DNA of 64,000 nucleotides from positions 17,692 to 81,691 of the forward strand of contig SUYM01000013.1 in NCBI GenBank assembly GCA_015060455.1, read 5' to 3'. The notes below the pieces were generated by a model. The model saw only the letters and a list, made by a program, of their open reading frames with translations, ran no database searches and was not told the origin of the DNA. Position numbers and translations under genes: made by a program. Source of the stretch: Bacteroidales bacterium (lineage in GTDB: Bacteria > Bacteroidota > Bacteroidia > Bacteroidales > UBA932). The first letter of the stretch is position 1; each line of letters opens with the position of its first letter. Below, piece after piece: positions 34,643 through 56,503 of the stretch.

Positions 34643-35938
34643 TCAAAAAACATTCAATGTATCAACACATGAACGAGCACGCTCATGCAGTTTTTGCATT
34701 GTCGATAATTTAGAATTAACAGGCATCTTCAACACCAAATTCCCATAATATAAAGCCTTTGCTTTATTGTCTGTTTTAACGTGCATCTCCATCAACAATA
34801 TAAGGGGATATAGGCGTGATGGGACCATATAATGAGCGTGGATATAACATTTTTCTGCTTTGTCGTACTGCATCATACCTTCATAGTTTTTTCCCATTAT
34901 ATTGTAAAACATGGGGTCGGAAGATATACGCGAGCCTTTTTCAAGCACCTCATTACTTTTTTGATATTGTCCGAGTTTATGTAGTGCATATCCGTAATCA
35001 TATAGGAAGCGGTAATTATCACTCAACGTATTATATAAATTGTCATACTCCTGCACAACTTCATCATAGAGTTCGTAAGATGAAAGGTATCTGGTGCTTT
35101 TCCATACACTTTCTGCCTCACTTTCAATATGGAATACACTCAACGGATATGAAAAGAAGGCAAATACGGAAAGTGAGATTAGTCCATACCCAAGAGGACT
35201 TTTTTTACGAATAAGAACAATTAATAGAATAATTAAAATCAAAATAGTCGCAATCATTGCCACTACTCCATATTCAACACCAATCCTTAAATACTCGTTG
35301 AACGCATACTCCGGACATCCGGCGACCCTGACAATCATCTCACACCTCTCTTTTTCCGCAAAATATTCTGCCTGAGTTCTTCCATATACGCCCAATATCG
35401 CGTTCGGTCCGCTGCCGGTCAAAGGATTATCGCATATCGCTCTTAATTCCATATGCCATATATGTAGTCTTCCAATGGCAGAATCCCATTTAATACAGAA
35501 AATTCCAACTAAAAGGGTCACGACAGATATGGCAACTATAGCCGCTAATTTTCGATTCTCTGTTACCCATTTGTGTAACCCATATTCCGTATATGCAAGA
35601 ATTAAACACACTATCCCAAAACCTAACCATGCTGCTCTGCTCATTGATGCGGGAAGTACCAACATACATAGCACAGCAGAAACTGCCGCCACAATCTGAC
35701 AAAATCTGACACACCTGTACTTCTCACCTCGGCTGATGATCAGATAAGAAACAAGTATTGATAGAAATATAGATATCCATCCGCCGAATGGTCCCGGATT
35801 TTCAAAACTGCCAGTCATAGCAAACTGTACATGTCCGGAGGCTCGAACGCCTAATATCTGAAGTAATCCTAAGATAGACTCGTAAGATGCGATAACTGAT
35901 ATCAGTAAAACAAGAATTATGTTAAACGTTTTCTTCAT
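34643..35938 (-). CDS. O-antigen ligase/WzyC-like membrane protein with C-terminal TPR region
   Basis: Multiple TM helices, PASMSRAAWLGF, NPLTGSGPNAI, then TPR-like helices. Confidence 0.7.
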   Translation of the reverse strand: MKKTFNIILVLLISVIASYESILGLLQILGVRASGHVQFAMTGSFENPGPFGGWISIFLSILVSYLIISRGEKYRCVRFCQIVAAVSAVLCMLVLPASMSRAAWLGFGIVCLILAYTEYGLHKWVTENRKLAAIVAISVVTLLVGIFCIKWDSAIGRLHIWHMELRAICDNPLTGSGPNAILGVYGRTQAEYFAEKERCEMIVRVAGCPEYAFNEYLRIGVEYGVVAMIATILILIILLIVLIRKKSPLGYGLISLSVFAFFSYPLSVFHIESEAESVWKSTRYLSSYELYDEVVQEYDNLYNTLSDNYRFLYDYGYALHKLGQYQKSNEVLEKGSRISSDPMFYNIMGKNYEGMMQYDKAEKCYIHAHYMVPSRLYPLILLMEMHVKTDNKAKALYYGNLVLKMPVNSKLSTMQKLHERARSCVDTLNVF

Positions 35939-38900
35939 GAAATAACTCTATCGCATTTACTGAGACAGAATACAGGCAAAACCATAATAACAGCAATAAG
36001 TGAAACGATCATTCCTCCGATAGTTCCTATGGCGAAATCGAACCAAAAGACTTCCTGCGGGCCGTCTATAAGGAAAGGTATCAATCCCAGAACCGTAGAA
36101 ATTACTGTCAGCATTATAGGGTTTATCTTTCTACCGAGCGCCTTCACATAGCCGCGGATTCCTGTCAGTTCTGGATTATGTTGTATTACATCCTTATATG
36201 TCAACACTAAATATATTCCTGCATTCACGACAATTCCACATAGCATTACGAATGCCGCAAATCCGCCCTGATCAAAAGATAGATCGGACAAGCCAAAAGT
36301 CAGGAAAAGACCTATGAATGAAATCGGAATCATAAATATTACAGCCAGCGGAAGGCGAAACGATTCAAAGATAATTGCCAGCATCACGAAAATAACTGCC
36401 ACTATCAGGAATATCAGCCAGGCATACTTGTCTTTGTTCTCATCCCACCAGCCTCCTTGAGGGTTATAAGCCTTATAGCCTATCGGAAGTATTTCTTCGT
36501 TCATATGCTCTACAGCATTATTTATAACCTTGTTGGACAGTTCATAGCTTCCAATAAAGTCAAAACGCACACTTAGTTCATACGATTGATTATTTTTAGA
36601 TATGGTAACTCCAGATATTTTTTTTTCAATATTACCTATTTCTTGCAGAGGGACAGAGACATCTTCTACACAAACTGGAGTATGCAGAAAGTGCCAGTAG
36701 TCATATTTTTCTTTTTCAGATGATCGCAAAACCACCTCCGTCATTTCGCCTTCAGTGATGATAGATGATACGGAATTATCATATAATTGCGAAGCCAATG
36801 CTGAATAATACTGATATGGAGTGATATTCACTAAAGCCATTCTCTTGAAGTCATATGCCATATTAAGCTCGGTTTTGGGGCGCCCGTTCCATCCGGTTCC
36901 CCAAACCTCAGCTCCAGAGACTCGTCTATTCTTGGATATGTTTTCAATCAGATATTCTGCATATAGTTTAAGTTCCTGATAGTTGTAACCCCTGAGAGTT
37001 ATTCCATGTGACTTATGATTTGTCACAATATTGTTATTAAATCCGTTATCGTCTATACCATAAATCAACCAGTTAGCACCACCAAAGTTTATAGCCATTG
37101 AGGTTACCAGAGACTTGAGTTGCAACGGAAATGCAGTGTCTTCATATTCCGGTTTGAATTCTACTATTATTGACGCATTATCATATGAAGATATTTTTGT
37201 TGTAAACACCTTGATTTCATCAAACCCTGCAAGATAATTCTCCATTGATTTCACCACCTCATTCAACTGATGTACGGTACATCCTTCAAGCATTCCTGCT
37301 TTGATATGCAGAGTCTTCTGCTGAGGCTCACGATAGAAATTTGATCTATCTAATGCTCTATAGAATGCTCCAAAAGAAGATCCAGCGATTTTGTCTATTG
37401 CCTGTCTGTTGTCAGCATATGGTCTCCAGGATACAACTTTCTCCACCCCTTTCTGCCAGAGGTTCTTGTCCGTTTTCTTCTCCAACTGTGCGGAAGTCGG
37501 AAGCAGGCAAAGTGGCAAACCGAAAATAAGAATGAAAACGAAGATATAGACCCATCTGTGCCTTAGGCCCCATCCTATATATATTCTATAACTCTCTGCC
37601 CATCTTACCTGACGTCTGTGCTTTTTCATTGACGACACAGAAGCCGAAGTCTGCACCGGAAGATAATCCATCAGCGCCGGTATGAACAGCCAAGACACAA
37701 AAAGAGAAGCCACAAGATTAAGCGAAATGACCCAAATGAAGTCCTTCAGGTTTGCCTTCTCGCTCTCCGGCAGAAGGAGGACCATCAGCAGAGCCGCAAT
37801 AGTTGTCCCCACGGCAGCGAGCAGAGAAGGAAATGCCTTCCTGTCGCGGAAATGGGCATAATGGTCTATCATCACGATAGTGGTATCTATCACTATACCC
37901 AGAGAAACGGTAATTCCAGCAAGGGTGTATATGTGGATGCTGATACCGGCAAAGGCATAAATTGCAAGTGCAATCAGCAGATTTACAGCAAGAGTCAGGA
38001 CTATTATGAGCATATATCTCCACGAACGACTCACTGCAAAGACAAACAGCAGAAGAATCAGCAGGCATAGTCCTGTACGAAGATATATCTTATCAAGCTC
38101 TCCCGACACATATTCGGATGAATCGTATGCTATGCTCGCGGTTATCTCTTCCGGAAATTCACGTTGCAGTTTCAGCATTGTCTCGCGGACATCTTTTGTC
38201 ACGGTTAAGAGATTGACGTCTCCAGCTACTCCAACAGAGAGGGTGATGGTGTTAAGTCCGTTGACTCTGTAGTATGATTCTGGGAGCGACTCCTGATATT
38301 TCCAGTCCGCAACATCTCGCAGATGAACGATTCTTCCCTCTGAATTCTTCACAGGGATGCTTCCAAAATCCTCTCCTTCATTCATAGAGGCAAGCCTTAC
38401 GGCCATAGTTTCACTCCCAGCCTCGGATATTCCTATCAAAGTCTCGGAATATGCGTTACGGAATGCTTCTGCGATATCAGATGGGTTCACCCCGGCAGAC
38501 GCAGTCTTGGCTGCATCAAAGGTTATCACCCAATGGTATGGAGTCACACCATAAAGCGACACGTTGTCAACACCCTTTACAGCGGAAATGTCCGGCATGA
38601 CGTGCTCGCGGACATACCTCTCTATCTCCTGTGAAGGCAAGCTGCCTTTTATAAGATAGGACATTGCAGTTGTAACCCTTTGTCCTTGGGCATTATGAGA
38701 GATTGATGGGTATGATACATCGTCTGGTAGGTCCGGGTATATGTATCTGATTGCCGAAGCAATTTCAAGACGAGCCACAGACAAGTCTGTCCCTCTCCCA
38801 AATTTTGCCCTTACTCGCCCTCGTCCAAGATACGAATCCGATGACACTTCCGTGACACCTTCTACACGTGAGATCACCCCTTCCAATTTTGATGTAACTT

Positions 38901-39072
38901 CAGACTCTACAATTTCAGGAGATGCTCCCGGATAAGAAAACGATATAGTTACAGTTCTACTGGCAGAAGATGGTTTATACTGAATATTCAGCATAGGAAG
39001 CGATACTATGCCGATCACCGACAGCACAGCCATCACTAACAATACTGAGAATGATGAAATCTTTCTACTCAT
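35935..39072 (-). CDS. RND-family efflux permease (second of a tandem pair)
   Basis: MSRKISSFSVLLVMAVLSVIGIVSLPMLNIQYKPSS...; AcrB-like topology. Confidence 0.9.
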   Translation of the reverse strand: MSRKISSFSVLLVMAVLSVIGIVSLPMLNIQYKPSSASRTVTISFSYPGASPEIVESEVTSKLEGVISRVEGVTEVSSDSYLGRGRVRAKFGRGTDLSVARLEIASAIRYIYPDLPDDVSYPSISHNAQGQRVTTAMSYLIKGSLPSQEIERYVREHVMPDISAVKGVDNVSLYGVTPYHWVITFDAAKTASAGVNPSDIAEAFRNAYSETLIGISEAGSETMAVRLASMNEGEDFGSIPVKNSEGRIVHLRDVADWKYQESLPESYYRVNGLNTITLSVGVAGDVNLLTVTKDVRETMLKLQREFPEEITASIAYDSSEYVSGELDKIYLRTGLCLLILLLFVFAVSRSWRYMLIIVLTLAVNLLIALAIYAFAGISIHIYTLAGITVSLGIVIDTTIVMIDHYAHFRDRKAFPSLLAAVGTTIAALLMVLLLPESEKANLKDFIWVISLNLVASLFVSWLFIPALMDYLPVQTSASVSSMKKHRRQVRWAESYRIYIGWGLRHRWVYIFVFILIFGLPLCLLPTSAQLEKKTDKNLWQKGVEKVVSWRPYADNRQAIDKIAGSSFGAFYRALDRSNFYREPQQKTLHIKAGMLEGCTVHQLNEVVKSMENYLAGFDEIKVFTTKISSYDNASIIVEFKPEYEDTAFPLQLKSLVTSMAINFGGANWLIYGIDDNGFNNNIVTNHKSHGITLRGYNYQELKLYAEYLIENISKNRRVSGAEVWGTGWNGRPKTELNMAYDFKRMALVNITPYQYYSALASQLYDNSVSSIITEGEMTEVVLRSSEKEKYDYWHFLHTPVCVEDVSVPLQEIGNIEKKISGVTISKNNQSYELSVRFDFIGSYELSNKVINNAVEHMNEEILPIGYKAYNPQGGWWDENKDKYAWLIFLIVAVIFVMLAIIFESFRLPLAVIFMIPISFIGLFLTFGLSDLSFDQGGFAAFVMLCGIVVNAGIYLVLTYKDVIQHNPELTGIRGYVKALGRKINPIMLTVISTVLGLIPFLIDGPQEVFWFDFAIGTIGGMIVSLIAVIMVLPVFCLSKCDRVIS

Positions 39073-42000
39073 CTTTTCTTCTGTATATCGAATAATAGAG
39101 CGCCGGAAGCACAAACAGGCTCACAAGAGTTCCAATGGTCATACCCACAATGATCACAATTGACATCGGATATTGGAGGTCATCACCCATATTGCCTCTG
39201 CTGAGGAACGGGCAAACAGCCAAAATCGTCGTAAGCGAAGTCATTATGATTGCCTTCCGCCTTCGGCTACTAGCCTCGGTCACGGCCTGTCTGAGCGCAT
39301 AGCCTTCCTTCCTCATCCTGTTTATCGTGTCTATCTTCAGAATCGAGTCGTTGATCACGATTCCACATATGACTACAAGACCGATCATCGACATCAGATT
39401 GATGCTTAACCCCATAACCCACAGGACAATCAGTGAAGCGAACACATCCACGACTATCTCAGACAAGATTATCACCGGCTGAAGGAGCGACTCAAATTGG
39501 GAAGCCAGAATCAGATATAGCAGCACAACAGCAATAATCAGGACCAGCATGAGTTCCAACACCATCTTCCTGTTCGAGAACCACGAGCCACTATAACTCA
39601 CCTCATATCCGTCATTTTCGCCAACCACGGAATTCACAATTGCCATCACTTCAGGGACATTATCCACATCCAGAGAGACGGGATAATAGTTACCCTCTGC
39701 CCCGGACACAACGGTCTTGAAATCCGCCATATAAGTTTGACGCATAAGTACCGAAACAGGAATCCTTACACCATCCTTGACAATAAATTTCTCCGAAAGA
39801 ATTTCAGCAAGGCTTCCTGCGTCATCTCCGGTAAGCACGGGGATCGTTCTTGCCCCCTGAACAATCGAGAACAATCTGTTTTCATTAAGGGAATTCCTGA
39901 GAACAGATGACAACTCCAAATATGACACATCATACAATGTCATCATCTGCGGATCTGCAATGAAAAGCGCATCGGTCTTTACCGGAACATCCTCAATATG
40001 CACTCCCGGCAGTTTAGCGCGAAGTTTCCCCAGCAACCCACGTAATCCTTCTACCTCAAGACGCGGAAGCGATGCTGGTCTTATCCTTGCGACCAGCGGA
40101 GCCTCGCTTTCGGCGAAAACAGCATCAAAGATATTGCCCGAGACTTCAAACCCATATACAGCAGAAGGATATTTCTCTGAAACGGCCTTTGCCAAAGCAG
40201 TCTTTACTTCTTCGACAGTCTTCATATCCTCGCAGTTCACATAGATTGAGGTTTCTCCGGTTCCAAGTTCACCGCTATGACCGAGGATGAACCTCTGCAT
40301 TCCCACCATTGAGGTGGTCTGAAGGCATTCATTCCGGATCATATTCTCCAGAGATGCTACTCTGCGTTCATTCTCCCAAATGCTTATCTGCTCGTTCCAG
40401 TCGATGGTCATTATAGTCTCCGTATAGGTCATCTCCGGAAGTCTTTCCTTTGGCATCAGTGCAAAACAAACCACGGCTCCCACCACGGACACTGCAAGAA
40501 TGCTCCACGCCACGACTCTATGCTCTATGAACCATCCCATTATTTTCTCGTCCCATCTGCGGAGCGGTTCATCAAAGGATATGCGCTCAAGCAGAGGATT
40601 GGCACGGAAGGACGGAAGCTTGCGATACCACCAATAGTAATAGACAGGTATCACAGTAAGTGTGACCACATAGGATGTCAGCAGGACAATTGTCACAGCC
40701 ATCGCCTGGTCGAAGAAGAGTTCGCCGGCGATTCCGCTGACGAAGATCAAAGGAATGAAAACCGCACACGTAGTAAGTACAGAACTGAGCATCGGTCCTG
40801 CGACCTCCTTGGTGCCTTCAATCACAGCATCCCGCAAAGCCTCTCCTCGCTGCCATCTTCCAGTGATGTTATCTACAAGGACGATGGTATTGTCCGCCAT
40901 CATTCCCACTCCCAGAAGAAGGCCTGAAAGAGATATTATGTTGATGGAAAGCCCCATCACGTAAAAAACGGCCATCGAAAATATCAACGCAACAGGCATC
41001 GTCAGAGACACAAGTGCAGGAGAACGGAAGTCCTTCATAAAGAAGAATATCACAAGACAGGCAAGAATAACTCCTACCATGATGTTCTGCACAAGATTGT
41101 TGATCGAATATTCCAGCAACTGGGTCTGGTCTCGGGTAACAGTAAACTTTATCTCCGGATACTCATTTGAGAAGTTTCCCATCATTGTATCCATACTTCT
41201 TCTCAAAGCGGACATTCTTGCATCGTTCTGCTTGATCACTGCCATACACACTGACCTTTTCCCGTCAGAGCGGACAAGTCCGGTCTTCTTGCCCGGTTGC
41301 TGCTGAACGCTTGCAATATCCTTTATCTGCATCACCCTGTCCCCGGTCCTGAACCAGATGTTCGCAATATCCTCGCAGGCGGCGACGCTAGAAAGGAACT
41401 TTACATTATACCTATACTGGCCGTCGTGGATGGTAAGCGATCCGAGATGGATGTTTGACGAATTTACGATATTCTCGAACTGAGCCTGAGTCAGTCCCAA
41501 CTGATCCAGCTTCCTCTGGTCAGGGATTATCATTATCTGATCATCGATATAACCGCTTATATCCACCATAGCCACCTCTTCCTGCTGTTCCAGACGCTTG
41601 CATATCACGTCCTGCGCAAAGCGGCTCATCTGATTGAATGCCTCTTCGGTATCCTCTACAGGAGTCAGATTTATGTAGAACGCAGGAATATCGGTAGCGC
41701 TGGCTTTCAACACCTTAGGACGGTCTATATCAGGAAGGACAGACATACATCTGTCGATCTTCTCATTCACCTCCACAAACACATAGTCCATGTCAGATCC
41801 GTGACTGAATCTAAGTCTGATAGTGCCGAATCCGTCTCTGGACTCGGTAGTGATCTCTTCCACTCCGTTCACCTGCATCAGTTGTTGACGTAGCGTCTTT
41901 ATGACGCTTTCATCCATCTCTCGTGCAGACATCTGAGAAGAAACCGCCTGAATGGTTATGTAAGGAATATCCATATCCGGAATCAACGACACAGGCAGAA

Positions 42001-42085
42001 GTCTCATGCTCACAATACCGAGCACGACCACCACCAGCATCATCATAGTCACGGAAATCGGTCTATCCAACAGGGTCTTCAGCAT
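39065..42085 (-). CDS. RND-family efflux permease (first of a tandem pair)
   Basis: MLKTLLDRPISVTMMMLVVVVLGIVSMRLLPVSLIPDMDIPYI..., GVGMMADNTIVLVDNI. Confidence 0.92.
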   Translation of the reverse strand: MLKTLLDRPISVTMMMLVVVVLGIVSMRLLPVSLIPDMDIPYITIQAVSSQMSAREMDESVIKTLRQQLMQVNGVEEITTESRDGFGTIRLRFSHGSDMDYVFVEVNEKIDRCMSVLPDIDRPKVLKASATDIPAFYINLTPVEDTEEAFNQMSRFAQDVICKRLEQQEEVAMVDISGYIDDQIMIIPDQRKLDQLGLTQAQFENIVNSSNIHLGSLTIHDGQYRYNVKFLSSVAACEDIANIWFRTGDRVMQIKDIASVQQQPGKKTGLVRSDGKRSVCMAVIKQNDARMSALRRSMDTMMGNFSNEYPEIKFTVTRDQTQLLEYSINNLVQNIMVGVILACLVIFFFMKDFRSPALVSLTMPVALIFSMAVFYVMGLSINIISLSGLLLGVGMMADNTIVLVDNITGRWQRGEALRDAVIEGTKEVAGPMLSSVLTTCAVFIPLIFVSGIAGELFFDQAMAVTIVLLTSYVVTLTVIPVYYYWWYRKLPSFRANPLLERISFDEPLRRWDEKIMGWFIEHRVVAWSILAVSVVGAVVCFALMPKERLPEMTYTETIMTIDWNEQISIWENERRVASLENMIRNECLQTTSMVGMQRFILGHSGELGTGETSIYVNCEDMKTVEEVKTALAKAVSEKYPSAVYGFEVSGNIFDAVFAESEAPLVARIRPASLPRLEVEGLRGLLGKLRAKLPGVHIEDVPVKTDALFIADPQMMTLYDVSYLELSSVLRNSLNENRLFSIVQGARTIPVLTGDDAGSLAEILSEKFIVKDGVRIPVSVLMRQTYMADFKTVVSGAEGNYYPVSLDVDNVPEVMAIVNSVVGENDGYEVSYSGSWFSNRKMVLELMLVLIIAVVLLYLILASQFESLLQPVIILSEIVVDVFASLIVLWVMGLSINLMSMIGLVVICGIVINDSILKIDTINRMRKEGYALRQAVTEASSRRRKAIIMTSLTTILAVCPFLSRGNMGDDLQYPMSIVIIVGMTIGTLVSLFVLPALYYSIYRRKDE

Positions 42086-42089
42086 AACC

Positions 42090-43169
42090 TTATTTCTTTA
42101 ACTGTACCTTTGAACCGTCAGCAAGATTAAGATTACCCTTGACGATTACTTTGTCTCCGTCATTGAGTTTAGCGCCCCTGTCTGCATTGGCCGTAACTAC
42201 ATGTGAATCTCCGTTAGAACGGATAATATTCACGTATGTCCAGTGTGCGACACCATCGTCAGTATAAGTGAAGAGCACATCTAGATTGTCACGCACAACT
42301 ACGGCATTTCTCGGTACCACCAACTGTCTCGGAATCATGCGTTCTACGATCACCTTCACATTCATTCCATCAATCAACGAACCGTCATTACGGACTGTAG
42401 CACGGACCGCAATCTGACCGTTCTTATCGACTGTCGGGTTTATCTCGCTGACCTTGCCTGTAACTGACTTCGACGGATCAGCAAAAGGAATCACCTTCAC
42501 CTGAAGCCCTTTCTCCAGAAATGCATATTCTGATTCCATTACCGAGAAATCCACATCAAGGCTGCTGTCGTCAATCACTGTGCAGAACGGATCAACAGTT
42601 ATCCTGTCGTACTCCTTCAGTTTCAAATCTGCGACTTTTCCACTGTATGGAGCCTTTAGAACGGCCCCCTCAAAGTCCAGTCGGGCTCTTTCCAGACTGT
42701 TCTTTGCAGAAGTATAGCCCGAACGCATCTTTGCCATAGCAAGAACCTTCTGAGGTACGCCTGCAGTATCCTTGGCAGCATAACCCTGACCGGCAAGCAC
42801 ATCGTAAAGTTCCAGTTCCGCCTTTCCCAAAGCAATCTGAGCAGCCTCCATAGAAAGTTTGAGATCAGGTCTGTCAAGTTCCGCAATCACGCTTCCTGCA
42901 GACACCTTTCCCCCATTGACCACATTCAACTCCGACACGATGCCACTGCTTCCAAAAGACAGAGAAGCCCTGCGTCCGGCCTTAAGTTTTCCGTTTGACA
43001 GCAACTGATGGGCAAAGTCCGTCCTCTTCAAAGTAATGACTTCCACCTCATTTATCCCCGGCATGGCAACGATCTTTCCATCCTTAAACTCATCTGCAGA
43101 AGGATTCCCACAGGCTGTGATTGCCATTGTCGTACACATGACGACCATTATATTCAAAAACTTTCTCAT
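42090..43169 (-). CDS. RND adaptor / membrane fusion protein (HlyD-like) lipoprotein
   Basis: Lipobox TACG; SVIAELDRPDLKLSMEAAQIAL..., FEGAVLKAPYSGKVADL. Confidence 0.92.
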   Translation of the reverse strand: MRKFLNIMVVMCTTMAITACGNPSADEFKDGKIVAMPGINEVEVITLKRTDFAHQLLSNGKLKAGRRASLSFGSSGIVSELNVVNGGKVSAGSVIAELDRPDLKLSMEAAQIALGKAELELYDVLAGQGYAAKDTAGVPQKVLAMAKMRSGYTSAKNSLERARLDFEGAVLKAPYSGKVADLKLKEYDRITVDPFCTVIDDSSLDVDFSVMESEYAFLEKGLQVKVIPFADPSKSVTGKVSEINPTVDKNGQIAVRATVRNDGSLIDGMNVKVIVERMIPRQLVVPRNAVVVRDNLDVLFTYTDDGVAHWTYVNIIRSNGDSHVVTANADRGAKLNDGDKVIVKGNLNLADGSKVQLKK

Positions 43170-43267: not shown

Positions 43268-44263
43268 TTAGTCCTTGAAATAGTGATAATATAAGATGTT
43301 GGCTTGATTTGTATTCATACCATATAAAAGGTCATTTGCGTTATCTATTACAAAAACATTTATATATTTATCCAACAAAATACGTTTCCTGAGATTTCCC
43401 TCCCAATCAAACACATGAATTTCCGGTAAAATATCTTCATTAAAAGATCCATTAAAACAAAGCGCATAGATATTATCATTGTAAATACATGGGTAAGAGC
43501 CATAGGCTATATGATTTTCCTTTTCTCCAGGCTTGTATCTACGAAAAGTATTTGGCACACGCACATCTACATCTATTGTGTTCTCCTCATTTATATCCAA
43601 TATTCTAATCTTTCTAAAATTTGCATACAAACTGGCGACTTTATTCTCCGTAGGATGTTTTAGAATATGCTTTATGTAAGTGAATGCCTTCATCTCCCCA
43701 TTATAGTCACCCCATTCCGGATACGCACACAAATACTCCGGCTCATTGTCAGTATATTTATATAAAATGAACTCGGCATCCTCGTTGGCAAGATTCATAG
43801 ACAAATAACCATTTTCTACAAATATTCCATTCTGCGGATGCTTCCGAGTATTTATCTTTGATGACGACAAAATATTAATTTTATCTCCATCAACAACCAC
43901 CTCCTTCTTTAGTCCTCCTACATCCATGCATACAAATCCCTCATTGGTTCCAACTATACTTCTAGCATCAATATGCATAAATTCATTTGGTCCTCTTCCT
44001 TTTATACCAATATTAGTATAATGCCCTGAAAGTGGATCACTGAATATTGAAAACAAGGTATCGCCTTCACACTGATATACAACTAAATTATCACCTTGCA
44101 TAAACATCTTTGCGGGCATCAGCATTTCTCGTGACAAATCTATTTCATGCAGCGAAACTTCACTTGTCACTTCTGCATTTTCAACTATTCGAACGTTTGT
44201 CCGATTGCAGCAAACAAAAATTACCAAAAGGAAGGGTAAAGATATTTTTATAACAGTATTCAT
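43268..44263 (-). CDS. 6-bladed beta-propeller-type lipoprotein (module A)
   Basis: Lipobox-like VCC; IKGRGPNEFMHID; start at 44263 overlaps upstream NVEALA stop as ATGA. Confidence 0.7.
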   Translation of the reverse strand: MNTVIKISLPFLLVIFVCCNRTNVRIVENAEVTSEVSLHEIDLSREMLMPAKMFMQGDNLVVYQCEGDTLFSIFSDPLSGHYTNIGIKGRGPNEFMHIDARSIVGTNEGFVCMDVGGLKKEVVVDGDKINILSSSKINTRKHPQNGIFVENGYLSMNLANEDAEFILYKYTDNEPEYLCAYPEWGDYNGEMKAFTYIKHILKHPTENKVASLYANFRKIRILDINEENTIDVDVRVPNTFRRYKPGEKENHIAYGSYPCIYNDNIYALCFNGSFNEDILPEIHVFDWEGNLRKRILLDKYINVFVIDNANDLLYGMNTNQANILYYHYFKD

Positions 44264-44541
44264 CGCATGCATTTTTGATTTACATTTGATGCAGAGGATA
44301 CTTTTTTGATTGTACAGTCAAAACAATCACGAACCTCCAAATATAAAGAAGGATCATAGTTATCATTGTCCACCTTCCAGCAGTCAACGTAACCATCTGT
44401 ACCTATTTCATTTCGGGCCAAAGCTTCAATGTTTGCGTGAAATAAAGAATCGGACCGATTACTTTTAACAAGCAAAGCAATAGCAATAACATTACATAAA
44501 AGTACAGTAGTAGCGACACAAGCATAAATTCTTTTCATCAT
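44260..44541 (-). CDS. NVEALA-type peptide precursor (module A)
   Basis: TM leader then FHANIEALARNEIG, Cys-containing core CWKV...CFDC...C. Confidence 0.75.
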   Translation of the reverse strand: MMKRIYACVATTVLLCNVIAIALLVKSNRSDSLFHANIEALARNEIGTDGYVDCWKVDNDNYDPSLYLEVRDCFDCTIKKVSSASNVNQKCMR

Positions 44542-44562: not shown

Positions 44563-46035
44563 TTAGTCTATCATTTCTTTAACATCAAGATTCAGATTAC
44601 TTCCCTTGATGAAATCATAAAGGGTATATTGTCTCAAAGTGTAATAGTAATCCCAGAAGTTGCTCACATCTGTGATATATTTCCGGAGGGCAGTATTGTT
44701 TTCCAACTGAGCGGTATTAAGTTCCATCACGCTTGCCTTGCCGCTACGGAACTTCTCCATCATAAGTTCATACCTCTCCTGGGCAATCAGCATCGCCCTT
44801 TTAGATACAGAACACTGATGTCTCTGATTATTGAACTGTCCTACTGCAGTAAATATCTTACGACGGAAATCATTCTCTGACTGCTGCACCTGAGCCCTCA
44901 CAACTTCCTGTGCCGCCTTGGCCTTCTGCACCTTACCCTTACCAAGTCCCCAATCAAAGATCGGCACACTGAAAGACAGACCAACAACCTCCTGATCAAG
45001 CAGATCAGAATACACTCCACCGAAATCCGGAGCTGTCTGAGATAATCCGAAACGTGCATTCAGAGACATAGATATCCCTCTCGATGCTTTAGCCTGTGCA
45101 ACAGCCGCCTCAGCATTCAGAAGATTGATCTCATTATTCAGACTGAAGGTTGAATTCTCCAAAGCCTTAGCCATTACCAAATCATAATCAATATACACAT
45201 CCGGAAGATTCGTCTCCAGCACAGGTGTTATCTCATAAGACTCATCGTATCCAAGAACGGAGTTCAACACCATCTGAGCCTCACGGACAGCAACAGAGGT
45301 TTCATTAATGGATATACTGTCATTGAGGACACGCAGTTCCAACTGCAGGAGTTCATCTCTGGTCACTGAGCCCAACGCCTGACGTTCCCTTGCCACACTC
45401 AGCATCTTTCCTGTATTAGTATAGTTACTGGTAGCAATCTCATAGTTCATCCTTGCTAGAATCAGCGAATAATATGCTCGCACAGTATTAATGGTAATCT
45501 GTTCCATAGACTCCAGATACTGTCTCTTTCCCTTCTCATACTCCTTTGGCTCAATCTTCTTGTCCCACTTGAACTGATTGTATGTAAAGAGGGGCTGATG
45601 ATACGATATCGTGATAGGCTGCGAATACCAGGTAAGACTTTTATCCATACCGAACTGATCAATACGGGACAGATCGGAATAAACTGACAGAGTGCCACCT
45701 GTGAATGTCAGATTCTGCTTCACTTGTATGCCTATACTATTCTGAAGGTTATATGAATTCACATACTGGAAACTACCGTCCTCATAACTCTGAATTAAAG
45801 TCAGCGACCTGTCGAAGTTCATAAGCCCTCCGTACAGATTGAACGACGGCAACCGGCTTGCTCTATATGAGCGATATGCCCAATATGTTGAAATAAAGGA
45901 CTGTTTGGCTTCCTTAGCCTCAACCGACTGAGTACGGGAAATGGAAATAGCCTCTGCCATAGATACTGTTTGTGCATCTATGCCAGGCAAAAATGATAAC
46001 CACAGACCAATTGATATAACTAAAAGTTTTTTCAT
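44563..46035 (-). CDS. TolC-like outer membrane efflux protein
   Basis: Signal peptide, two OEP repeats, VGLSFSVPIFDWGLGKGKVQKAKA. Confidence 0.92.
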   Translation of the reverse strand: MKKLLVISIGLWLSFLPGIDAQTVSMAEAISISRTQSVEAKEAKQSFISTYWAYRSYRASRLPSFNLYGGLMNFDRSLTLIQSYEDGSFQYVNSYNLQNSIGIQVKQNLTFTGGTLSVYSDLSRIDQFGMDKSLTWYSQPITISYHQPLFTYNQFKWDKKIEPKEYEKGKRQYLESMEQITINTVRAYYSLILARMNYEIATSNYTNTGKMLSVARERQALGSVTRDELLQLELRVLNDSISINETSVAVREAQMVLNSVLGYDESYEITPVLETNLPDVYIDYDLVMAKALENSTFSLNNEINLLNAEAAVAQAKASRGISMSLNARFGLSQTAPDFGGVYSDLLDQEVVGLSFSVPIFDWGLGKGKVQKAKAAQEVVRAQVQQSENDFRRKIFTAVGQFNNQRHQCSVSKRAMLIAQERYELMMEKFRSGKASVMELNTAQLENNTALRKYITDVSNFWDYYYTLRQYTLYDFIKGSNLNLDVKEMID

Positions 46036-46844: not shown

Positions 46845-47123
46845 TCAAAGAATTATTACCTGTGTCAGCACAGTGCCTGATTTCATACTATATAATTCTA
46901 TCATATAGTCACCTGTCGGCTTATTCAATACTATCAGCACCGTATCCTGATATACCCAAAAGTCCTTTGCATGCAGAAGTTCTCTGGATAGCGGCAAAAT
47001 TTCATAAGTCGTCAGGACTTCCGTATCAATTTTATCTAAATCGAAGTTTTTCCTCTTGCCATTCAAAAACATAATCAGCGTTGTATTGACAACTATACAA
47101 AACAGATAGAACGCATATGACAA
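46845..47123 (-). pseudogene. Truncated N-terminal copy of a 6-bladed beta-propeller gene
   Basis: DLDKIDTEVLTTYEILPLSRELLHAKDFWVYQDTVLIVLNKPTGDY... nearly identical (aa and DNA) to 52712-53752, then stops. Confidence 0.85.
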
Positions 47124-47274
47124 AAAAGGAAGCTCTCATAATATCCCAAAAGGACTATTAAACACGCAAATATAATTATATATTTGATTTATAGGAATTC
47201 TAATGTTCAAATTTACGGAATTATCCCTTTTAGGCATGTAAATCTCCTAAACAAAAAAGTAAGAGATACTTATA

Positions 47275-47856: not shown

Positions 47857-48059
47857 TTACTACCTATAACTTCTCCGTCCCGATTCAACTCAAGTCCCAA
47901 ACTTCTCAAATACCGACGAGCGGTTCTAACACTTCTTGACTTCTGTCGTCCATATTCCTTCATTTCCTGAATATAATCATCTATTGTAATCGTTGTTTGA
48001 GAACTTTCTCCTTCCCAGACAATAGTTCGACACATAGTTATTTTCTTAATTGATGCCAT
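47853..48059 (-). CDS. Putative antitoxin partner (68 aa)
   Basis: Small ORF immediately upstream, 4-nt overlap with toxin. Confidence 0.55.
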   Translation of the reverse strand: MASIKKITMCRTIVWEGESSQTTITIDDYIQEMKEYGRQKSRSVRTARRYLRSLGLELNRDGEVIGSK

Positions 48060-48369: not shown

Positions 48370-50268
48370 TCAATGCCAAATTATTGTCTTCTTTTCATCA
48401 TCCCACACGAATATACGATTCTGAACCCCGCGGGATATACCTTTTATATAATATAATGCTCCTGACGGAAGATCGGAAACTCTCAAACAAACATCATCAG
48501 CTGTTATTGAGGTATGAAATTTCCATGACGAGTCATGCCAATAATATATTTCATACTCATCTCCCGGGATAATCGCATTACCGTCTCCTCGTCTTACATA
48601 CATAATCTCCTTCAGGGTAACAGGTTCGCCAAGATCAATGATTTCCAATAGTTTATTTTCGTTCGGGCTATAATTAGTCAAGGGGTCTCCATCCACAAGT
48701 GAATTTCCAATTATAGGCCTTATAAAGTTACCATCAACGCCCACGAAGAAAAGTTCTGCCATATCACACTTTCTGCCATCCTCTGCACATAAACGCCAAT
48801 ATCTATGCGGTTTTGTTTGACGAACTATGACCTTCCCGGAAGTGAGCAACCATTCAGGCAACTCAGATACAATCTCTGACTTACTGAACAACGGGTCGTC
48901 TGAGGCTTCAATATAGCCGCCATGGAGTGCTTTGTGTATAACAAAGACATGCTGAAACATCGGATATTTCCTACAAATCTCAAAAGATTCAGTATCCCTA
49001 AAATTGGGAGTAAATTCATTTATATTCCCGTCAAAGTCCAAATGAAACGGCTTACTTAACGGTATCTGCTCACCATTCTCATAACCGACTACCATATAAG
49101 TAATATTTTTTCCCATTCCTTTAAAAAATGCCCTTCCACAACACTTATTTCCCCAATAGACCGGTTTCCAATCGAAATTATCAAATACCGCTATATACAC
49201 ATCACGCCGAGAATATCCGGTTCCCTTTATCAGAGGCACTTCGATATCTACAGTTTGCATATATTCATCTGTAACATCCTTAAAGAACGGGGTACGACAG
49301 AGAGGTGGCACATCGCCTTGATACTTCTTCAAAAGAGCCATACACTCCTTGTTCTGAGCGTATGTCCTTCTAAACACTTTTGCAAATTTGCAATGTGAAT
49401 AGTGTGGATAATCCGGATTACTCGCGTATGGATTAAACATGGTCGTCTTCCCTCTAAGATTAGGAAAAATACACCAATAATGCCCATAATATCTATCTGG
49501 CCACTGTGGCGTATAATCAATACCAACAGGAATACCCTTACTGCGCATGATTCTGACGGCCATCTCTGAGTAATCCTCGCAAGAAGCACCGGGCAAAAGT
49601 GCGAAAGTTGAAGGACGATATATGTTATGACCAAACGAGTCGTGATGCCATTTCTGCTTCACTATCATTCCCTTTAACTTATCATTAACGCGACAAATAG
49701 CCGCACGCGGACAGCCCTTATAGTCATCACACTCGTTCAGTTTATCAATATAACTTTTGGCAATAGGTTCCAAATCCACACGCCATTCATCCATTGGCTC
49801 CGACTGTCCACATGTATAAGGAAGCAGCCACTCGCAAAATTCTTCGAAATCTATATGTTGCGCCCACTCTCCTTCTCTCCACTGAGCGAAAGCCAAGTCT
49901 ATATTACGAATAAGAAAATCTGCACGAATTACTCTACTGTCAAACTCATAAGAAATCCTGTCATCGTATCCCGAAGAAAGTTCCGGCAATTTTCGAAAGG
50001 CTATATCAGGCGATTCACTAAATTCGAAGAGACTGTCTACAGCATCATAATATGTGGAGTAATCCCCAATCATAGATTTATGACCTGGCATGTTCGTAAT
50101 AAGCCACTCTGCTGCCTGTAACTTCTCTTCATCCCCGGATGCAGCATAATGTTCAAGCACCTTTTCCAATTCGCCTCTATTGTCACCTGCAAACTCCAAT
50201 GCCTGCTGCAATCCATCAGCACACGAAACAGTCAACACAAAAACAACCAATAATATAAATCTATTCAT
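48370..50268 (-). CDS. Transglutaminase-like lipoprotein with C-terminal discoidin-like region
   Basis: VSC lipobox; PGASCEDYSEMAVRIMRSKGIPVGIDYTPQWPDRYYGHYWCIFPN (Cys/His transglutaminase core). Confidence 0.75.
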   Translation of the reverse strand: MNRFILLVVFVLTVSCADGLQQALEFAGDNRGELEKVLEHYAASGDEEKLQAAEWLITNMPGHKSMIGDYSTYYDAVDSLFEFSESPDIAFRKLPELSSGYDDRISYEFDSRVIRADFLIRNIDLAFAQWREGEWAQHIDFEEFCEWLLPYTCGQSEPMDEWRVDLEPIAKSYIDKLNECDDYKGCPRAAICRVNDKLKGMIVKQKWHHDSFGHNIYRPSTFALLPGASCEDYSEMAVRIMRSKGIPVGIDYTPQWPDRYYGHYWCIFPNLRGKTTMFNPYASNPDYPHYSHCKFAKVFRRTYAQNKECMALLKKYQGDVPPLCRTPFFKDVTDEYMQTVDIEVPLIKGTGYSRRDVYIAVFDNFDWKPVYWGNKCCGRAFFKGMGKNITYMVVGYENGEQIPLSKPFHLDFDGNINEFTPNFRDTESFEICRKYPMFQHVFVIHKALHGGYIEASDDPLFSKSEIVSELPEWLLTSGKVIVRQTKPHRYWRLCAEDGRKCDMAELFFVGVDGNFIRPIIGNSLVDGDPLTNYSPNENKLLEIIDLGEPVTLKEIMYVRRGDGNAIIPGDEYEIYYWHDSSWKFHTSITADDVCLRVSDLPSGALYYIKGISRGVQNRIFVWDDEKKTIIWH

Positions 50269-50292: not shown

Positions 50293-51369
50293 TCAGTCAA
50301 ACACCAGGGAGTGTTCCATAGGAAATTTTATCACTTTTTCTGTGTCATAGTCAATCACATACAGTTCTCGCTGCTTTACATCAATATCGAAATACAATGC
50401 CCTGACAGGAAGTTTTATCTTAGCCAGTGGTGTGCCATTCCATTTGAAGAGATAAATTACAGGCGGTCCGAAAGCACCTTTATCCAACTCTTCAATCGTG
50501 CACCCGATATGTAAGCCTGCAAAAAAACTCTCATATACCTTTGCGTCATAGAACATCTTTCTTCTTTCATATCCATCTTCTCTCTCCAATTCATTTACAT
50601 CAGTAATCGATTCTCCGATGACAAGGGTCCTTTGAAAATCATTATCATAAGAATATAGATGAATAACATTCATAAGCGAACCAAATTCAACAATCATCTG
50701 TTTATCCTGGTTAACCACTATGGATGTTGCCAACAGATTGGCATCAGACACATTAACTGAGTTCAGTTTTACCATAGCCCGGTTAAAATACTCCTTCTTG
50801 TGGCCTGACAACATAAATCTTTCAAATCCCGTAGCATCCACATTCCATCTTCTGCAAAGCAATGTATCACCCGCTATCTTGAAATATCGCGCTCCAGAGG
50901 CGAGAGATAACGAATCAGCAACAACATCCCACGTCCCATATCCTAATTTCAACGACTCAACCAAATCATACACAAGGTAGTTACCTTTATAATCAAACAG
51001 ACCTACGTTATATGTTCCATCTTGAACATCGAAGTCAAGCCAGGAAACAAAAGGCTGATACAGAACCTCACCCGGTCCTCGTCCAATTCTAAGGAAAGGA
51101 GGATATCGACACTCTATGTCCTTTGAATAAACAGACAGACAACCCATAGTATCATGACACGATATCAGAATATAATCGTCCAACACTTTGAGTCCATGAC
51201 TACCAATAGTTTCGATTCCAATATTCTCGTATGATTCGGGTTCTATTTCCATCGGAAAGTCACTAACATAAACAATGTCGTCAAATGCGAACTGTTCTCT
51301 CCTGTTGCAGGACAAAAGCAACATGAGAGAACAAACAACCATCGCTAAATATCTACAAACATTGACCAT
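50293..51369 (-). CDS. 6-bladed beta-propeller-type lipoprotein (module B)
   Basis: LSC lipobox; LRIGRGPGEVLYQPF; FKWNGTPLAKIKLP. Confidence 0.75.
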   Translation of the reverse strand: MVNVCRYLAMVVCSLMLLLSCNRREQFAFDDIVYVSDFPMEIEPESYENIGIETIGSHGLKVLDDYILISCHDTMGCLSVYSKDIECRYPPFLRIGRGPGEVLYQPFVSWLDFDVQDGTYNVGLFDYKGNYLVYDLVESLKLGYGTWDVVADSLSLASGARYFKIAGDTLLCRRWNVDATGFERFMLSGHKKEYFNRAMVKLNSVNVSDANLLATSIVVNQDKQMIVEFGSLMNVIHLYSYDNDFQRTLVIGESITDVNELEREDGYERRKMFYDAKVYESFFAGLHIGCTIEELDKGAFGPPVIYLFKWNGTPLAKIKLPVRALYFDIDVKQRELYVIDYDTEKVIKFPMEHSLVFD

Positions 51370-51381
51370 CTGTGAAAAATC

Positions 51382-51651
51382 TTACTTACAAAACCCCATA
51401 CCACTGTAACCTCGACCTGGAATCACACTACACGTACCACAATACCTTACATCATCCGTCGGATCAGACATAACTGTCTCCCAACATCTGACATACTCTC
51501 CTGATTCTACCTGAGACAACGCTTCTACATTTTCCTCAAACAACATAACAATATTTAACACCCTCGGACTATCCGCCCTAAAGGTAACACACACCCAACT
51601 GGCGAACATTGCAATAACAATCGTCAATACTATAGTCGTCGTAATTTTCAT
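51382..51651 (-). CDS. NVEALA-type peptide precursor (module B, second)
   Basis: TM leader, FEENVEALSQVESGEYVRCWETVMSDPTDDVRYCGTCSVIPGRGYSGMGFCK. Confidence 0.85.
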   Translation of the reverse strand: MKITTTIVLTIVIAMFASWVCVTFRADSPRVLNIVMLFEENVEALSQVESGEYVRCWETVMSDPTDDVRYCGTCSVIPGRGYSGMGFCK

Positions 51652-51665
51652 ATCAATACCCTTTA

Positions 51666-51920
51666 TCAGTAACACGCACTCTTATCTGCACCACGACCCG
51701 GCAAAATACTACACGTACCACAATACATACATTGTTCTGACGGATCAGATGTTATTCTCCGATAGCACTTCGAACCTCCACTCTCCGCTCCAGCTAGTGC
51801 TTCGACATTTTTTGAAAAAACTGGATTCATAGTGCCAGTCCCGTTAAAAACGTAACCTGACAAAGAAATCACCACTGCAAGGGAAAAAATTGCAAATGCA
51901 AAGAAAAATTTGCGTATCAT
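51666..51920 (-). CDS. NVEALA-type peptide precursor (module B, first)
   Basis: TM leader, FSKNVEALAGAESGGSKCYRRITSDPSEQCMYCGTCSILPGRGADKSACY. Confidence 0.88.
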   Translation of the reverse strand: MIRKFFFAFAIFSLAVVISLSGYVFNGTGTMNPVFSKNVEALAGAESGGSKCYRRITSDPSEQCMYCGTCSILPGRGADKSACY

Positions 51921-52075: not shown

Positions 52076-52633
52076 TTACGGCTTTTCGGTATTCATCTCA
52101 TCCACTACTTTACAGAATAAATTCCAAAGAGCATCACCTGCTAAAGGGTCCCCCACAAATATAGGCTTTCCATTTCGACCTATCAAAAAGCTATGAAAAC
52201 GCTTATCTGACGGGATATGAAAGTTTTGTCTCGCAAAACTTCTATCATAATCAAGATAAACTGGAAAATCCTGATTCCGTCCTCGCAACGCATCTACTAC
52301 ATCTCCATATTCTTCTGCACCTGGAGACAATATCGTCATGACGACAAATGTCCCGAGACTATCAGCCAATTCATATATTGGTTTTCTCTCATGAAGATAA
52401 TTAATCTGACACAGACTACATGACAGGGAATCACTGTAAAAAATCATCACCGGCATATCCTCTTTTGTCTTTGACATAGAAAGTACACCTGACTCCACTT
52501 CTTGAAAACACGCAGGCAAGACTATATCCCGGCTCGTAAATTTTGCCAACTCGCGAGAAATTCTCGTCCGTTCGGAGCAAGAAAGCATCACAAGCAAAAG
52601 CATATTACAGATAAAAAATCTTGCAAGCCTCAT
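52076..52633 (-). CDS. Thioredoxin-like lipoprotein
   Basis: LSC lipobox; VMIFYSDSLSCSLCQINYLHE; PSDKRFHSFLIGRNGKPIFVGDP. Confidence 0.65.
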   Translation of the reverse strand: MRLARFFICNMLLLVMLSCSERTRISRELAKFTSRDIVLPACFQEVESGVLSMSKTKEDMPVMIFYSDSLSCSLCQINYLHERKPIYELADSLGTFVVMTILSPGAEEYGDVVDALRGRNQDFPVYLDYDRSFARQNFHIPSDKRFHSFLIGRNGKPIFVGDPLAGDALWNLFCKVVDEMNTEKP

Positions 52634-52711: not shown

Positions 52712-53752
52712 CTATCTGTGAAATTTATACAATACCACAAGACCATCATCATCTTTTCCCCTAACGTATAAAGTATTCCCATCTGAGGAGGTCGATATTG
52801 TAGCAAGATATTTATCAAGGAAGAAAGATCCAAGCAAGTTACCAGACCAGTCAAATTGAAAAATATAAGTTCCGCTGATTTTTTCTACATTTTGGCCAGA
52901 ATATGTAACATAAAAAGAATCGCCCGCATTACATGCCCCCATATAACTATAAAACACCGCTTCGAAAAACGACACGCGCCCATCGTTATAGGAATACTTT
53001 ACATTCAATTTTTTCGGTCCTGTAATTTTAGTTAACGGAGCAAGAGAATAATCATAAATCTCAATTTGGCTCAAATCCAAACCGGCAAAAAGTACAAGTC
53101 TTTTGCTTTCATTTATAAGTATGTGTCCTTGAGAGACGTTAAACGCATTCAATTTACGAGTATCCGGGTTCCTACCATCAGAGTAAAAAAAACGAGGTTC
53201 CTTGTTGTCCACACCATCATCAGATGAACTAAAACAGTACGGATTCAGAAACAACATTTTACCACCTATTTCATGAACATCATACACATTCAATTCTTCT
53301 TTATATTTCTTGAATGGTTCTAATTCATAGGCATCTTTATATTGTATGATTTCCTTTAAATCAATAACAGTATAGTTGCCCTTGACAAAATCTCTTACAT
53401 ATAAGGAATCTGTATTTACTCTGGCATTGCAATTCAACATTTCCATCGGACCATTCCCTTTCCTTATCTTCCTTGTCAACATTGCGCCTGATTTTGTGCT
53501 GTAGAATTCCACCCAATAGTCACTCGTCGGCTTATTCAATACTATCAGCACCGTATCCTGATATACCCAAAAGTCCTTTGCATGTAGAAGTTCTCGGGAA
53601 AGTGGCAAAATTTCATAAGAGGTAAGTACCTCCGTATTTATTTCATCCAACTTGAAAGTTTTTTCTTCATGCCATTCAATTACATAATCAGTGTTGTATT
53701 GACAACCACACAACACTGACAGAGCGCACATGACTAAAAGGTTAACTCTCAT
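52712..53752 (-). CDS. 6-bladed beta-propeller-type lipoprotein (module C)
   Basis: MRVNLLVMCALSVLCGCQ lipobox; RKIRKGNGPMEMLNCNA; ATGA overlap with NVEALA stop. Confidence 0.75.
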   Translation of the reverse strand: MRVNLLVMCALSVLCGCQYNTDYVIEWHEEKTFKLDEINTEVLTSYEILPLSRELLHAKDFWVYQDTVLIVLNKPTSDYWVEFYSTKSGAMLTRKIRKGNGPMEMLNCNARVNTDSLYVRDFVKGNYTVIDLKEIIQYKDAYELEPFKKYKEELNVYDVHEIGGKMLFLNPYCFSSSDDGVDNKEPRFFYSDGRNPDTRKLNAFNVSQGHILINESKRLVLFAGLDLSQIEIYDYSLAPLTKITGPKKLNVKYSYNDGRVSFFEAVFYSYMGACNAGDSFYVTYSGQNVEKISGTYIFQFDWSGNLLGSFFLDKYLATISTSSDGNTLYVRGKDDDGLVVLYKFHR

Positions 53753-53982
53753 AAGTCTACTTGTTTTCCGGAGCATGATAACGTATTCCCCAAATAGGAC
53801 CCTTCGCACTCACCTTCTTCTCCTACACACTTGAAGATAACTTTACCTCTGACATTAGTGATCTCACAAGCTGCCAATGCCTCAACCTCTAAATTCCAAA
53901 CGCATGTGCTCTTTGAAATATTTAACACTACTGCGACTATTGCTGCAACAGCCACAAGCATAAAAAATAAAATCTTTTTCAT
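53749..53982 (-). CDS. NVEALA-type peptide precursor (module C)
   Basis: TM leader, CVWNLEVEALAACEITNVRGKVIFKCVGEEGECEGSYLGNTLSCSGKQVDL. Confidence 0.82.
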   Translation of the reverse strand: MKKILFFMLVAVAAIVAVVLNISKSTCVWNLEVEALAACEITNVRGKVIFKCVGEEGECEGSYLGNTLSCSGKQVDL

Positions 53983-54009: not shown

Positions 54010-54396
54010 TTAAATATCTACATTTTCTTCATCCGCCTCAAAAATATGCCCCTCTATTATACTTTCAAAAGGATAATCATCCTCTACAAAAATAATCTTA
54101 ATTTTTGTTTTTCCTACATACTGGTCTAAATAATATGAAAATATTTCTTTATACATCCCCTCCAAATACATACAGCAGGGGGTATGGATATTAGATTTTT
54201 CATATGCTTGAATAAATATGATAGCCTTTGCAATACAAGCCGAACATGAGGCATCTAAATTATAGCGAATAAACCCTCCTTTGTTAATTTGTTTTGAAAA
54301 AGCCTTAATTTCATTGTTCATATCCAAAACGGCTCTATTAGAGTCATCTACACAACTAAAGAAAAGGGCACAAAGAAGAATAAGCAGTCTTTTCAT
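54010..54396 (-). CDS. Small lipoprotein with CxxC (SCSACIAKA) motif
   Basis: FFSC lipobox; LDASCSACIAKAIIFIQAY; distal gene of island. Confidence 0.5.
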   Translation of the reverse strand: MKRLLILLCALFFSCVDDSNRAVLDMNNEIKAFSKQINKGGFIRYNLDASCSACIAKAIIFIQAYEKSNIHTPCCMYLEGMYKEIFSYYLDQYVGKTKIKIIFVEDDYPFESIIEGHIFEADEENVDI

Positions 54397-54506
54397 CTTA
54401 CCATTAATGTCAGTTCGACGAAATTAAGTTATTGATTATTAGGTAAATAGTAATATATTTTGTAAATTTGAAATCGCCACAAGTCAGCTTCACAAAATAC
54501 ATTGCT

Positions 54507-55130
54507 ATGATCTCAAGGGATAAAATTACTAAAATTTTCTGTATGGCCGATGACTTTTGCAAACTTTATGACCGCTTTATCAAGGCTAATGGTCTTGCAC
54601 CTAAGCGCGACAAGTCCAAACGCAAGTATCATCGCGACCCGAAGATGTCCTCTGCTGAGATCATAACCATAATGATATTGTTTCATTTAAGTGGATATAA
54701 GTGTTTCAAGCATTTCTATATCAATGAAGTACAGGAGCATATAACGGATATGTTTCCTGTAACGGTTTCCTATAACCGCTTTACTGAACTTGAAAGGACT
54801 GTTGTGATCCCGTTCATACTCTTTGTGAAGAAATGCTGTATGGGGAAATGCACTGGAATCAGTTTCGTCGACAGCACGTTGCTTAGAGTATGCAGGAACC
54901 AGCGCATTCATATGCACAAGGTCTTTAAAGGTATAGCTCAGCGAGGACAGTGTTCGATGGGATGGTTCTATGGCTTCAAACTTCATCTGATCTGCAATGA
55001 GATGGAAGAATTGTTGAGCTTTATGGTAACTCCAGGCAATGTTGATGACCGTGAACCTCTGAAGAACAAGACTTTCGTTGAACAGCTGTCTGGAAAGTTG
55101 GTCGGCGCAGGTGTGGGATTTCAGCAGTGA
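54507..55130 (+). mobile_element. IS982-family transposase, 3'-truncated remnant
   Basis: KITKIFCMADDFCKLYDRF...FHLSGYKCFKHFY...GWFYGFKLHLICNEMEELLSFMVTPGNVDDREPL; C-terminal part missing. Confidence 0.85.
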
Positions 55131-56139: not shown

Positions 56140-56503
56140 TTTGTTACTGCCTGTTTCAAAGGATACTTCATCCGCATTTCTGCCAAATGAAAAGAAATAC
56201 AAATTGTCTGCCCTCCAAAATCGCTGATCATTATCTTTATATAGATTTCCCTCCCTTTGACATCTTTTCCGAAAACCCACATCTCACCCAATCTGTTAAG
56301 GCTATCAACGACCGGTCCCTCAACGTAGTCTTCTGCATTCAGACTTTCAATAACTACTTTTCGATACGAAGGCACTATCTCCAACTCTTCAAGAGCTTTC
56401 TGATTCTTCCCATATCATCACGATAAATTATTCCATAGATCTTCATCTTTGCATGGAACATATCAAAAAAACTCTGGACCTCGTCTTTCGTCAAAACACT
56501 CAT
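56136..56503 (-). pseudogene. MqsR-like toxin with apparent frameshift
   Basis: Frame 1 MSVLTKDEVQSFFDMFHAKMKIYGIIYRDD then another frame GKNQKALEELEIVPSYRKVVIESLNAEDYVEGPVVDSLNRLGEMWVFGKDVKGREIYIKIMI. Confidence 0.65.

What the first reader, a model, noticed from the sequence alone, without database searches (positions are those of the whole stretch)
51382..51920. Tandem NVEALA peptide pair with shared YCGTCS[IV][IL]PGRG core
The two adjacent precursors differ in leader but share the post-motif core pattern C-x(n)-SDP-x(n)-YCGTCS(I/V)(L/I)PGRG-x(n)-C. Conservation of the Cys/Gly core after the EAL(A/S) motif looks like a leader/core arrangement with selection on the mature peptide.
Basis: partly seen in the sequence, partly recalled or inferred. 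Interest (0 to 1): 0.75.

Follow-up and report, generated by a model that had tools for sequence, protein, structure and literature searches.

The report
Modular NVEALA peptides with cognate propellers
Two small cysteine-rich proteins side by side in a gut bacterium are export precursors whose front half is shared within a genome and whose back half, the likely released peptide, travels between genomes together with its own partner protein, a pattern that looks like a toxin with its immunity protein and that gives a so far unstudied protein family a testable function.

Summary
They belong with the NVEALA family (Pfam PF14055; sub-threshold scores), which no paper in the held library names. In 89 precursors from 33 related genomes, leaders are alike within a genome (70% against 33% for cores), while similar cores recur between genomes on unrelated leaders (52% core, 35% leader = background). 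The boundary is at NVEAL[A/S/T]-x-x-E. Eighty of 89 precursors precede a six-bladed propeller lipoprotein; propeller type follows core type (29 of 31; shuffles mean 4.1, maximum 12), not leader. All 12 array-bearing genomes tested carry an extra S26 signal peptidase in or near the array; 15 of 15 array-free relatives carry none. Propellers occur without peptides, and one stands intact behind a frameshifted peptide. I read this as Sec-exported, S26-cleaved, disulfide-bonded secreted peptides with cognate propeller proteins, most likely toxins with immunity proteins. Leader/core modularity and core-propeller pairing are shown by sequence; cleavage, export and killing are inferred.

The parts
51666..51920 (-). 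NVEALA precursor A (84 aa): membrane-spanning leader, NVEALA, Cys-rich core of type A (...YCGTCSILPGRGADKSAC)
51382..51651 (-). NVEALA precursor B (89 aa): leader, NVEALS, four-Cys core of type B (...YCGTCSVIPGRGYSGMGFC)
   Evidence: AlphaFold2 model
50293..51369 (-). Six-bladed beta-propeller lipoprotein, cognate partner of the A/B cores (lipobox LLLSC)
   Evidence: (pLDDT 93)
53749..53982 (-). NVEALA-type precursor (EVEALA), different core; its core type recurs in L121
52712..53752 (-). Propeller lipoprotein partner of the 53749-53982 precursor (TolB_like, sub-threshold); its likely start overlaps the precursor's stop
44260..44541 (-). NVEALA precursor (93 aa, PF14055 29.8 bits, above cut-off); its core type recurs in L116
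43268..44272 (-). Propeller lipoprotein partner of the 44260-44541 precursor (PF15869 TolB_like, 53.4 bits)
52076..52633 (-). Thioredoxin-like lipoprotein with a CxxC-type motif (SCSLC), upstream of A; in the same place (TRX-A-B-propeller) in L065, L068 and L073
   Evidence: a relative (L069) scores weakly as Redoxin
48370..50268 (-). Transglutaminase-like lipoprotein with F5/8 type C domain; fused to the S26 peptidase in L116 and L124
46032..46835 (-). Cluster S26 signal peptidase (PF10502), second copy in the genome beside the housekeeping one on contig C50; Ser and Lys boxes intact
44563..46035 (-). TolC-type outer membrane channel (PF02321)
42090..43169 (-). HlyD/CusB-type membrane fusion protein
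39065..42085 (-). RND-type inner membrane pump protein 1
   Evidence: RND assignment from sequence reading
35935..39114 (-). RND-type inner membrane pump protein 2
   Evidence: RND assignment from sequence reading
34643..35938 (-). O-antigen-ligase-like (Wzy_C) plus TPR membrane protein, recurrent in the cassette
46862..47140 (-). Truncated propeller remnant, 82% DNA identity to 53474-53754

Best explanation
A and B are precursors of two related secreted, disulfide-bonded peptides of about 40 residues, members of an array of peptide/partner pairs. The leader (positively charged start, membrane-spanning helix, short linker, NVEAL[A/S/T]) takes the precursor through Sec into the inner membrane. 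The cluster's S26 signal peptidase cuts after the A-L-A/S of the motif (a -3/-1 small-residue site) and frees the core into the periplasm. The thioredoxin-like lipoprotein helps form its disulfides, the transglutaminase-like protein acts with the peptidase, and the TolC-MFP-RND pump expels the peptide. The downstream six-bladed propeller lipoprotein, held in the envelope and probably facing the periplasm, is the specific partner of its core and most likely the immunity protein against it. Shown by sequence: leader/core modularity, core-propeller pairing, presence/absence link with an extra S26, orphan propellers. Inferred: cleavage, disulfides, export route, toxicity and immunity.
For: Leader/core double dissociation: within-genome leader-similar pairs 0.70 leader and 0.33 core; between-genome core-similar pairs 0.52 core and 0.35 leader against a background of 0.34. 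Boundary: identity 0.82-1.00 through NVEAL[A/S/T], 0.21 and 0.34 at the next two positions, 0.92 at the conserved E, at most 0.20 after. Core-propeller pairing: 35 of 38 (expected 1.7); 29 of 31 after removing near-duplicate genomes and A precursors (shuffle mean 4.1, maximum 12); propeller similarity does not track leaders (rho 0.03). S26: 12 of 12 array genomes against 0 of 15 array-free relatives, p = 5.8e-8; two S26-transglutaminase fusions. Cores carry an even number of Cys in 68 of 89, p = 6e-7. Partner kept without peptide: stacked orphan propellers; a frameshifted peptide before an intact propeller; a propeller orthologue in G428 without the matching core found in that genome. Core modelled as a compact beta fold at pLDDT 82-90. 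No C39 peptidase in the own genome, 83% complete.
Against: No activity data for any member. Core and propeller are contiguous, so joint inheritance could in part be linkage. Net charge of cores is about -1, unlike typical cationic bacteriocins. T at the presumed -1 position in 19 of 89 is unusual for signal peptidase I (general knowledge). S26 was found beside only 11 of 19 NVEALA-bearing loci in the RND-based sample (many loci are cut by contig ends or the 10 kb flank), and 11 S26 loci there had no detected NVEALA gene. RND pumps usually export small molecules, so peptide export by one is an assumption. The source genome is an incomplete MAG.
Confidence: 0.55

Rival explanations
1. Peptide signals with cognate receptors: each core is a secreted pheromone and the propeller lipoprotein its binding receptor, so arrays encode strain-specific communication or kin recognition.
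For: One-to-one core-propeller pairing and high diversity suit ligand/receptor pairs equally well; orphan receptors can also occur; TPR proteins near DUF6377/BT3442-type families sit beside four arrays.
Against: No transmembrane sensor or regulator is part of the shared cassette; propellers carry a lipobox without the acidic surface-export signal in 55 of 57; peptide decay with retained partner and stacked orphan partners fit immunity better.
Confidence: 0.25
2. The propeller is a dedicated chaperone, modification or export partner of its core, not a receptor or immunity protein; the peptides serve some other envelope or host-directed function.
For: Propeller directly downstream of nearly every precursor and probably periplasmic; other maturation-type proteins share the cluster.
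Against: A maturation helper should be useless without its peptide, yet intact orphan propellers are common and one outlives a broken peptide; S26, TolC and RND are shared within the cluster while propellers are one per peptide.
Confidence: 0.12
3. Not secreted peptides at all: NVEALA proteins are small inner-membrane-anchored proteins whose Cys-rich domains stay attached and work in the envelope.
For: Leader is a long membrane-spanning helix followed by a second predicted helix over the motif; cleavage was not observed.
Against: Sharp change of constraint at a site that fits the -3/-1 rule and an extra signal peptidase present only where arrays are.
Confidence: 0.08

Closest known systems
Pfam PF14055 (NVEALA protein)
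   Same: Same motif and leader architecture; 44260-44541 scores above the cut-off (29.8 bits), A and B below it (21.8, 20.2; cut-off 27).
   Different: No function for the family was found; the leader/core modularity, propeller pairing and S26 link are not described in any paper of the held library.
Bacteroidetocins (PMC6671954)
   Same: Bacteroidota peptides with a leader, four Cys and a nearby thiol oxidoreductase gene.
   Different: Those use a double-glycine leader and an ABC transporter with peptidase domain and show no immunity protein; here a membrane-spanning leader, S26 peptidase, TolC-MFP-RND proteins and a per-peptide propeller, and no C39 domain found in the genome.
Two-peptide (class IIb) bacteriocins
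   Same: Two related peptides encoded in tandem, kept together in five lineages.
   Different: Class IIb peptides are exported by peptidase-containing ABC transporters and usually lack disulfides (general knowledge); joint action of A and B is untested.
RiPP precursor clusters
   Same: Leader/core arrangement with hypervariable cores on shared leaders.
   Different: No modifying enzyme of a known RiPP class was identified; a RiPP survey of Bacteroidales (PMC10352776) mentions neither NVEAL nor propellers nor signal peptidase.

Membership tests
Pfam PF14055 NVEALA | Profile match over the curated cut-off | tested here: not met
   A 21.8 and B 20.2 bits, cut-off 27; only 44260-44541 passes. A and B are best described as relatives of the family below its threshold.
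Pfam PF14055 NVEALA | N[V/I]EAL[A/S/T] motif after a membrane-spanning leader, then a Cys-bearing tail | tested here: met
Double-glycine bacteriocins / bacteroidetocins | Double-glycine leader with C39 peptidase ABC transporter | tested here: not met
   No C39 domain in the own genome (genome 83% complete); leader ends in EAL[A/S/T], not GG
Toxin-immunity (bacteriocin) systems | Peptide and partner co-inherited as a specific pair | tested here: met
Toxin-immunity (bacteriocin) systems | Partner gene found without the toxin; toxin rarely without the partner | tested here: met
   38 propellers without a detected NV-like gene upstream, at least one of them (L122) actually preceded by a divergent precursor; about 18 with too little room for one; 80 of 89 precursors have a propeller downstream, several of the rest lie at contig ends or near one
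Toxin-immunity (bacteriocin) systems | Growth inhibition and protection by the partner | not testable with these tools
   needs experiment
Two-peptide bacteriocins | Two peptides that act together | not testable with these tools
   Only conserved tandem order shown
Signal peptidase I (S26) | S26 profile and Ser/Lys catalytic boxes | tested here: met
   PF10502 90.7 bits, TIGR02227 79 bits; boxes GSSMEPTL and VKRCYGCPGD read

The most novel reading that the evidence does not exclude
A so far undescribed class of Bacteroidota secreted peptides in which an interchangeable Sec-type leader is cut by a cluster-encoded S26 signal peptidase, the core leaves through a TolC-RND pump, and a core-specific six-bladed propeller lipoprotein gives immunity, with core-plus-propeller cassettes passing between genomes onto local leaders.
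Probability: 0.4. Interest if true: 0.85.

Novelty: new variant of a known kind. Interest (0 to 1): 0.7.

Why it matters
NVEALA proteins are a Pfam family without a known function, found in gut and rumen Bacteroidota. The data give a concrete, testable anatomy: where the precursor is probably cut, which peptidase probably cuts it, which partner recognises it. If the toxin/immunity reading holds, these arrays are a large store of narrow-spectrum peptides with matched resistance genes that could shape competition among commensal Bacteroidota, with an export route unlike that of bacteroidetocins. The core-propeller matching is also useful by itself, since it predicts binding pairs from sequence.

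Tried and rejected
Double-glycine/C39 export: rejected, no C39 domain in the own genome, with the caveat of 83% completeness. Known fold for the core: no PDB fold or sequence match. Literature under NVEALA, PF14055, DUF4934, DUF6377: nothing on function (the five PF14055 papers appear from their titles to be mostly about Plasmodium gene numbers); general searches gave only background. dN/dS was not attempted because the pairs are too diverged. A first count of 38 propellers without peptide is too high: one (L122) has a divergent precursor (NVNVLA) upstream, and one (L119 11981) a broken one, so I rely on the roughly 18 with no room for a precursor.

Full report
What is there. On the minus strand, precursor A (51666-51920) and precursor B (51382-51651) lie 14 nt apart. 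The tails align at 51% while the leaders do not align. Against Pfam both score as NVEALA (PF14055) but below its cut-off; a third precursor at 44260-44541 passes it and a fourth at 53749-53982 has no Pfam match.

Surroundings. The genes from about 54.0 to 34.6 kb run the same way: precursor/propeller pairs, a thioredoxin-like lipoprotein, a transglutaminase-like lipoprotein, an S26 signal peptidase, TolC, a membrane fusion protein, two RND proteins and a Wzy_C/TPR protein. The same gene families recur around NVEALA arrays in other genomes of the family.

Leader and core. In 89 distinct precursors from 33 genomes, pairs within a genome with similar leaders show 0.70 leader and 0.33 core identity; between-genome pairs with similar cores show 0.52 core and 0.35 leader identity, the latter equal to background. 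Anchored on the motif, identity stays at 0.82-1.00 through position 5 (the A/S/T), falls to 0.21 and 0.34, rises to 0.92 at a conserved E and then stays at or below 0.20. Leader DNA is 83% alike within arrays with 76% identical synonymous codons, and the 30 bases upstream are 55% alike, which fits spread or homogenisation of a 5' module. The sample was gathered with a motif search, so precursors without the motif are missing; the leader/core contrast itself does not follow from that choice.

The A/B pair. The order A then B, with 8-15 nt between, is found in five lineages (window, G150/G172/G252, G282, G531, G477). B cores form one group (support 0.973 on a short alignment) and core identity exceeds leader identity in all A-A and B-B comparisons. 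So the duplication is probably older than the split of these lineages and both copies were kept.

The propeller. Eighty of 89 precursors have a six-bladed propeller lipoprotein directly downstream; several exceptions are at contig ends or have one a little further on. The window's propeller at 50293-51369 is modelled with pLDDT 93 and matches propellers (NHL domains, DFPase) in the PDB. The most similar propeller in another genome belongs to a precursor of the same core type in 35 of 38 cases (expected 1.7), and in 29 of 31 after removing near-duplicate genomes and A precursors (500 within-genome shuffles: mean 4.1, maximum 12). Leaders show no such link in the rank correlation (rho 0.03, p = 0.12) and only a weak one in best matches (14 of 58 against 6.7 expected). 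Contiguity of core and propeller may contribute.

The peptidase. Twelve genomes with arrays each have the housekeeping S26 gene of about 450 residues and at least one further S26 gene in or near the array (in G428 about 12 kb away); 15 relatives without detected arrays have only the housekeeping gene, Fisher p = 5.8e-8. In two genomes the S26 domain is fused to the transglutaminase-like domain. Among 80 loci collected through the RND protein, without regard to NVEALA, the two co-occur more than expected (p = 0.002) but not strictly: 11 both, 8 NVEALA only, 11 S26 only. The motif fits a signal peptidase site (A at -3; A, S or T at -1 in 82 of 89), though T is unusual there. Cleavage was not observed.

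Function. Cores carry an even number of Cys in 68 of 89 and the B core is modelled as a compact beta fold (pLDDT 82-90) without a PDB match. Most propellers lack the acidic surface-export signal (2 of 57 have three or more acidic residues), so they probably face the periplasm. Propellers without peptides are common, about 18 with no room for a precursor, several of them 36-49% and one 76% identical to peptide-linked propellers elsewhere. In L119 a precursor is broken by an 8-base gap and stops while its propeller remains intact at 82% identity. G428 holds a 76% identical propeller without the matching core anywhere found in its genome. Partner kept while peptide is lost is what immunity predicts; signalling with orphan receptors remains possible.

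Distribution. In the family sample 23 of 200 genomes had a PF14055 match at E <= 0.01; in an order-wide sample of 118 genomes 4 had one at E <= 1e-5. The system is patchy and reaches several families of Bacteroidales.

Noticed in passing
window 47275-48059: Two small genes (193 and 68 aa) sit between the transglutaminase-like gene and the S26 peptidase; the larger matches the PADLOC model PD-T4-9_A weakly (E 2.7e-6). They may be a toxin-antitoxin or defence pair inserted in the cluster.
   Followed up: partly
window 46862-47140: Truncated copy of the 52712-53752 propeller (82% DNA identity), a sign of local duplication and decay.
   Followed up: yes
window 54468-55130: IS982-family transposase at the edge of the cluster, possibly involved in its movement.
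   Followed up: no
window 55156-56280: Gene matching the MqsA-type antitoxin model below its cut-off (46.5 bits, cut-off 61.8).
   Followed up: no
window 54010-54396: Small lipoprotein with a CSAC motif and no Pfam match, just upstream of the array; may be another redox protein.
   Followed up: partly
L068:13033-14280, L073:10501-12303, L081:7797-9449, L082:3256-4989: TPR proteins related to DUF6377 and, for L082, the BT3442 family lie beside NVEALA arrays; possible regulators.
   Followed up: partly
L124:4971-7520 and L116:1815-4385: Single proteins joining an S26 signal peptidase with a transglutaminase-like and F5/8 region.
   Followed up: partly
L173, L174, L186, L187, L189, L193, L195, L198, L214, L219, L223: RND loci with an S26 gene, several also with the transglutaminase-like and Wzy-TPR genes, but no NVEALA gene found; they may carry other peptide families.
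   Followed up: no
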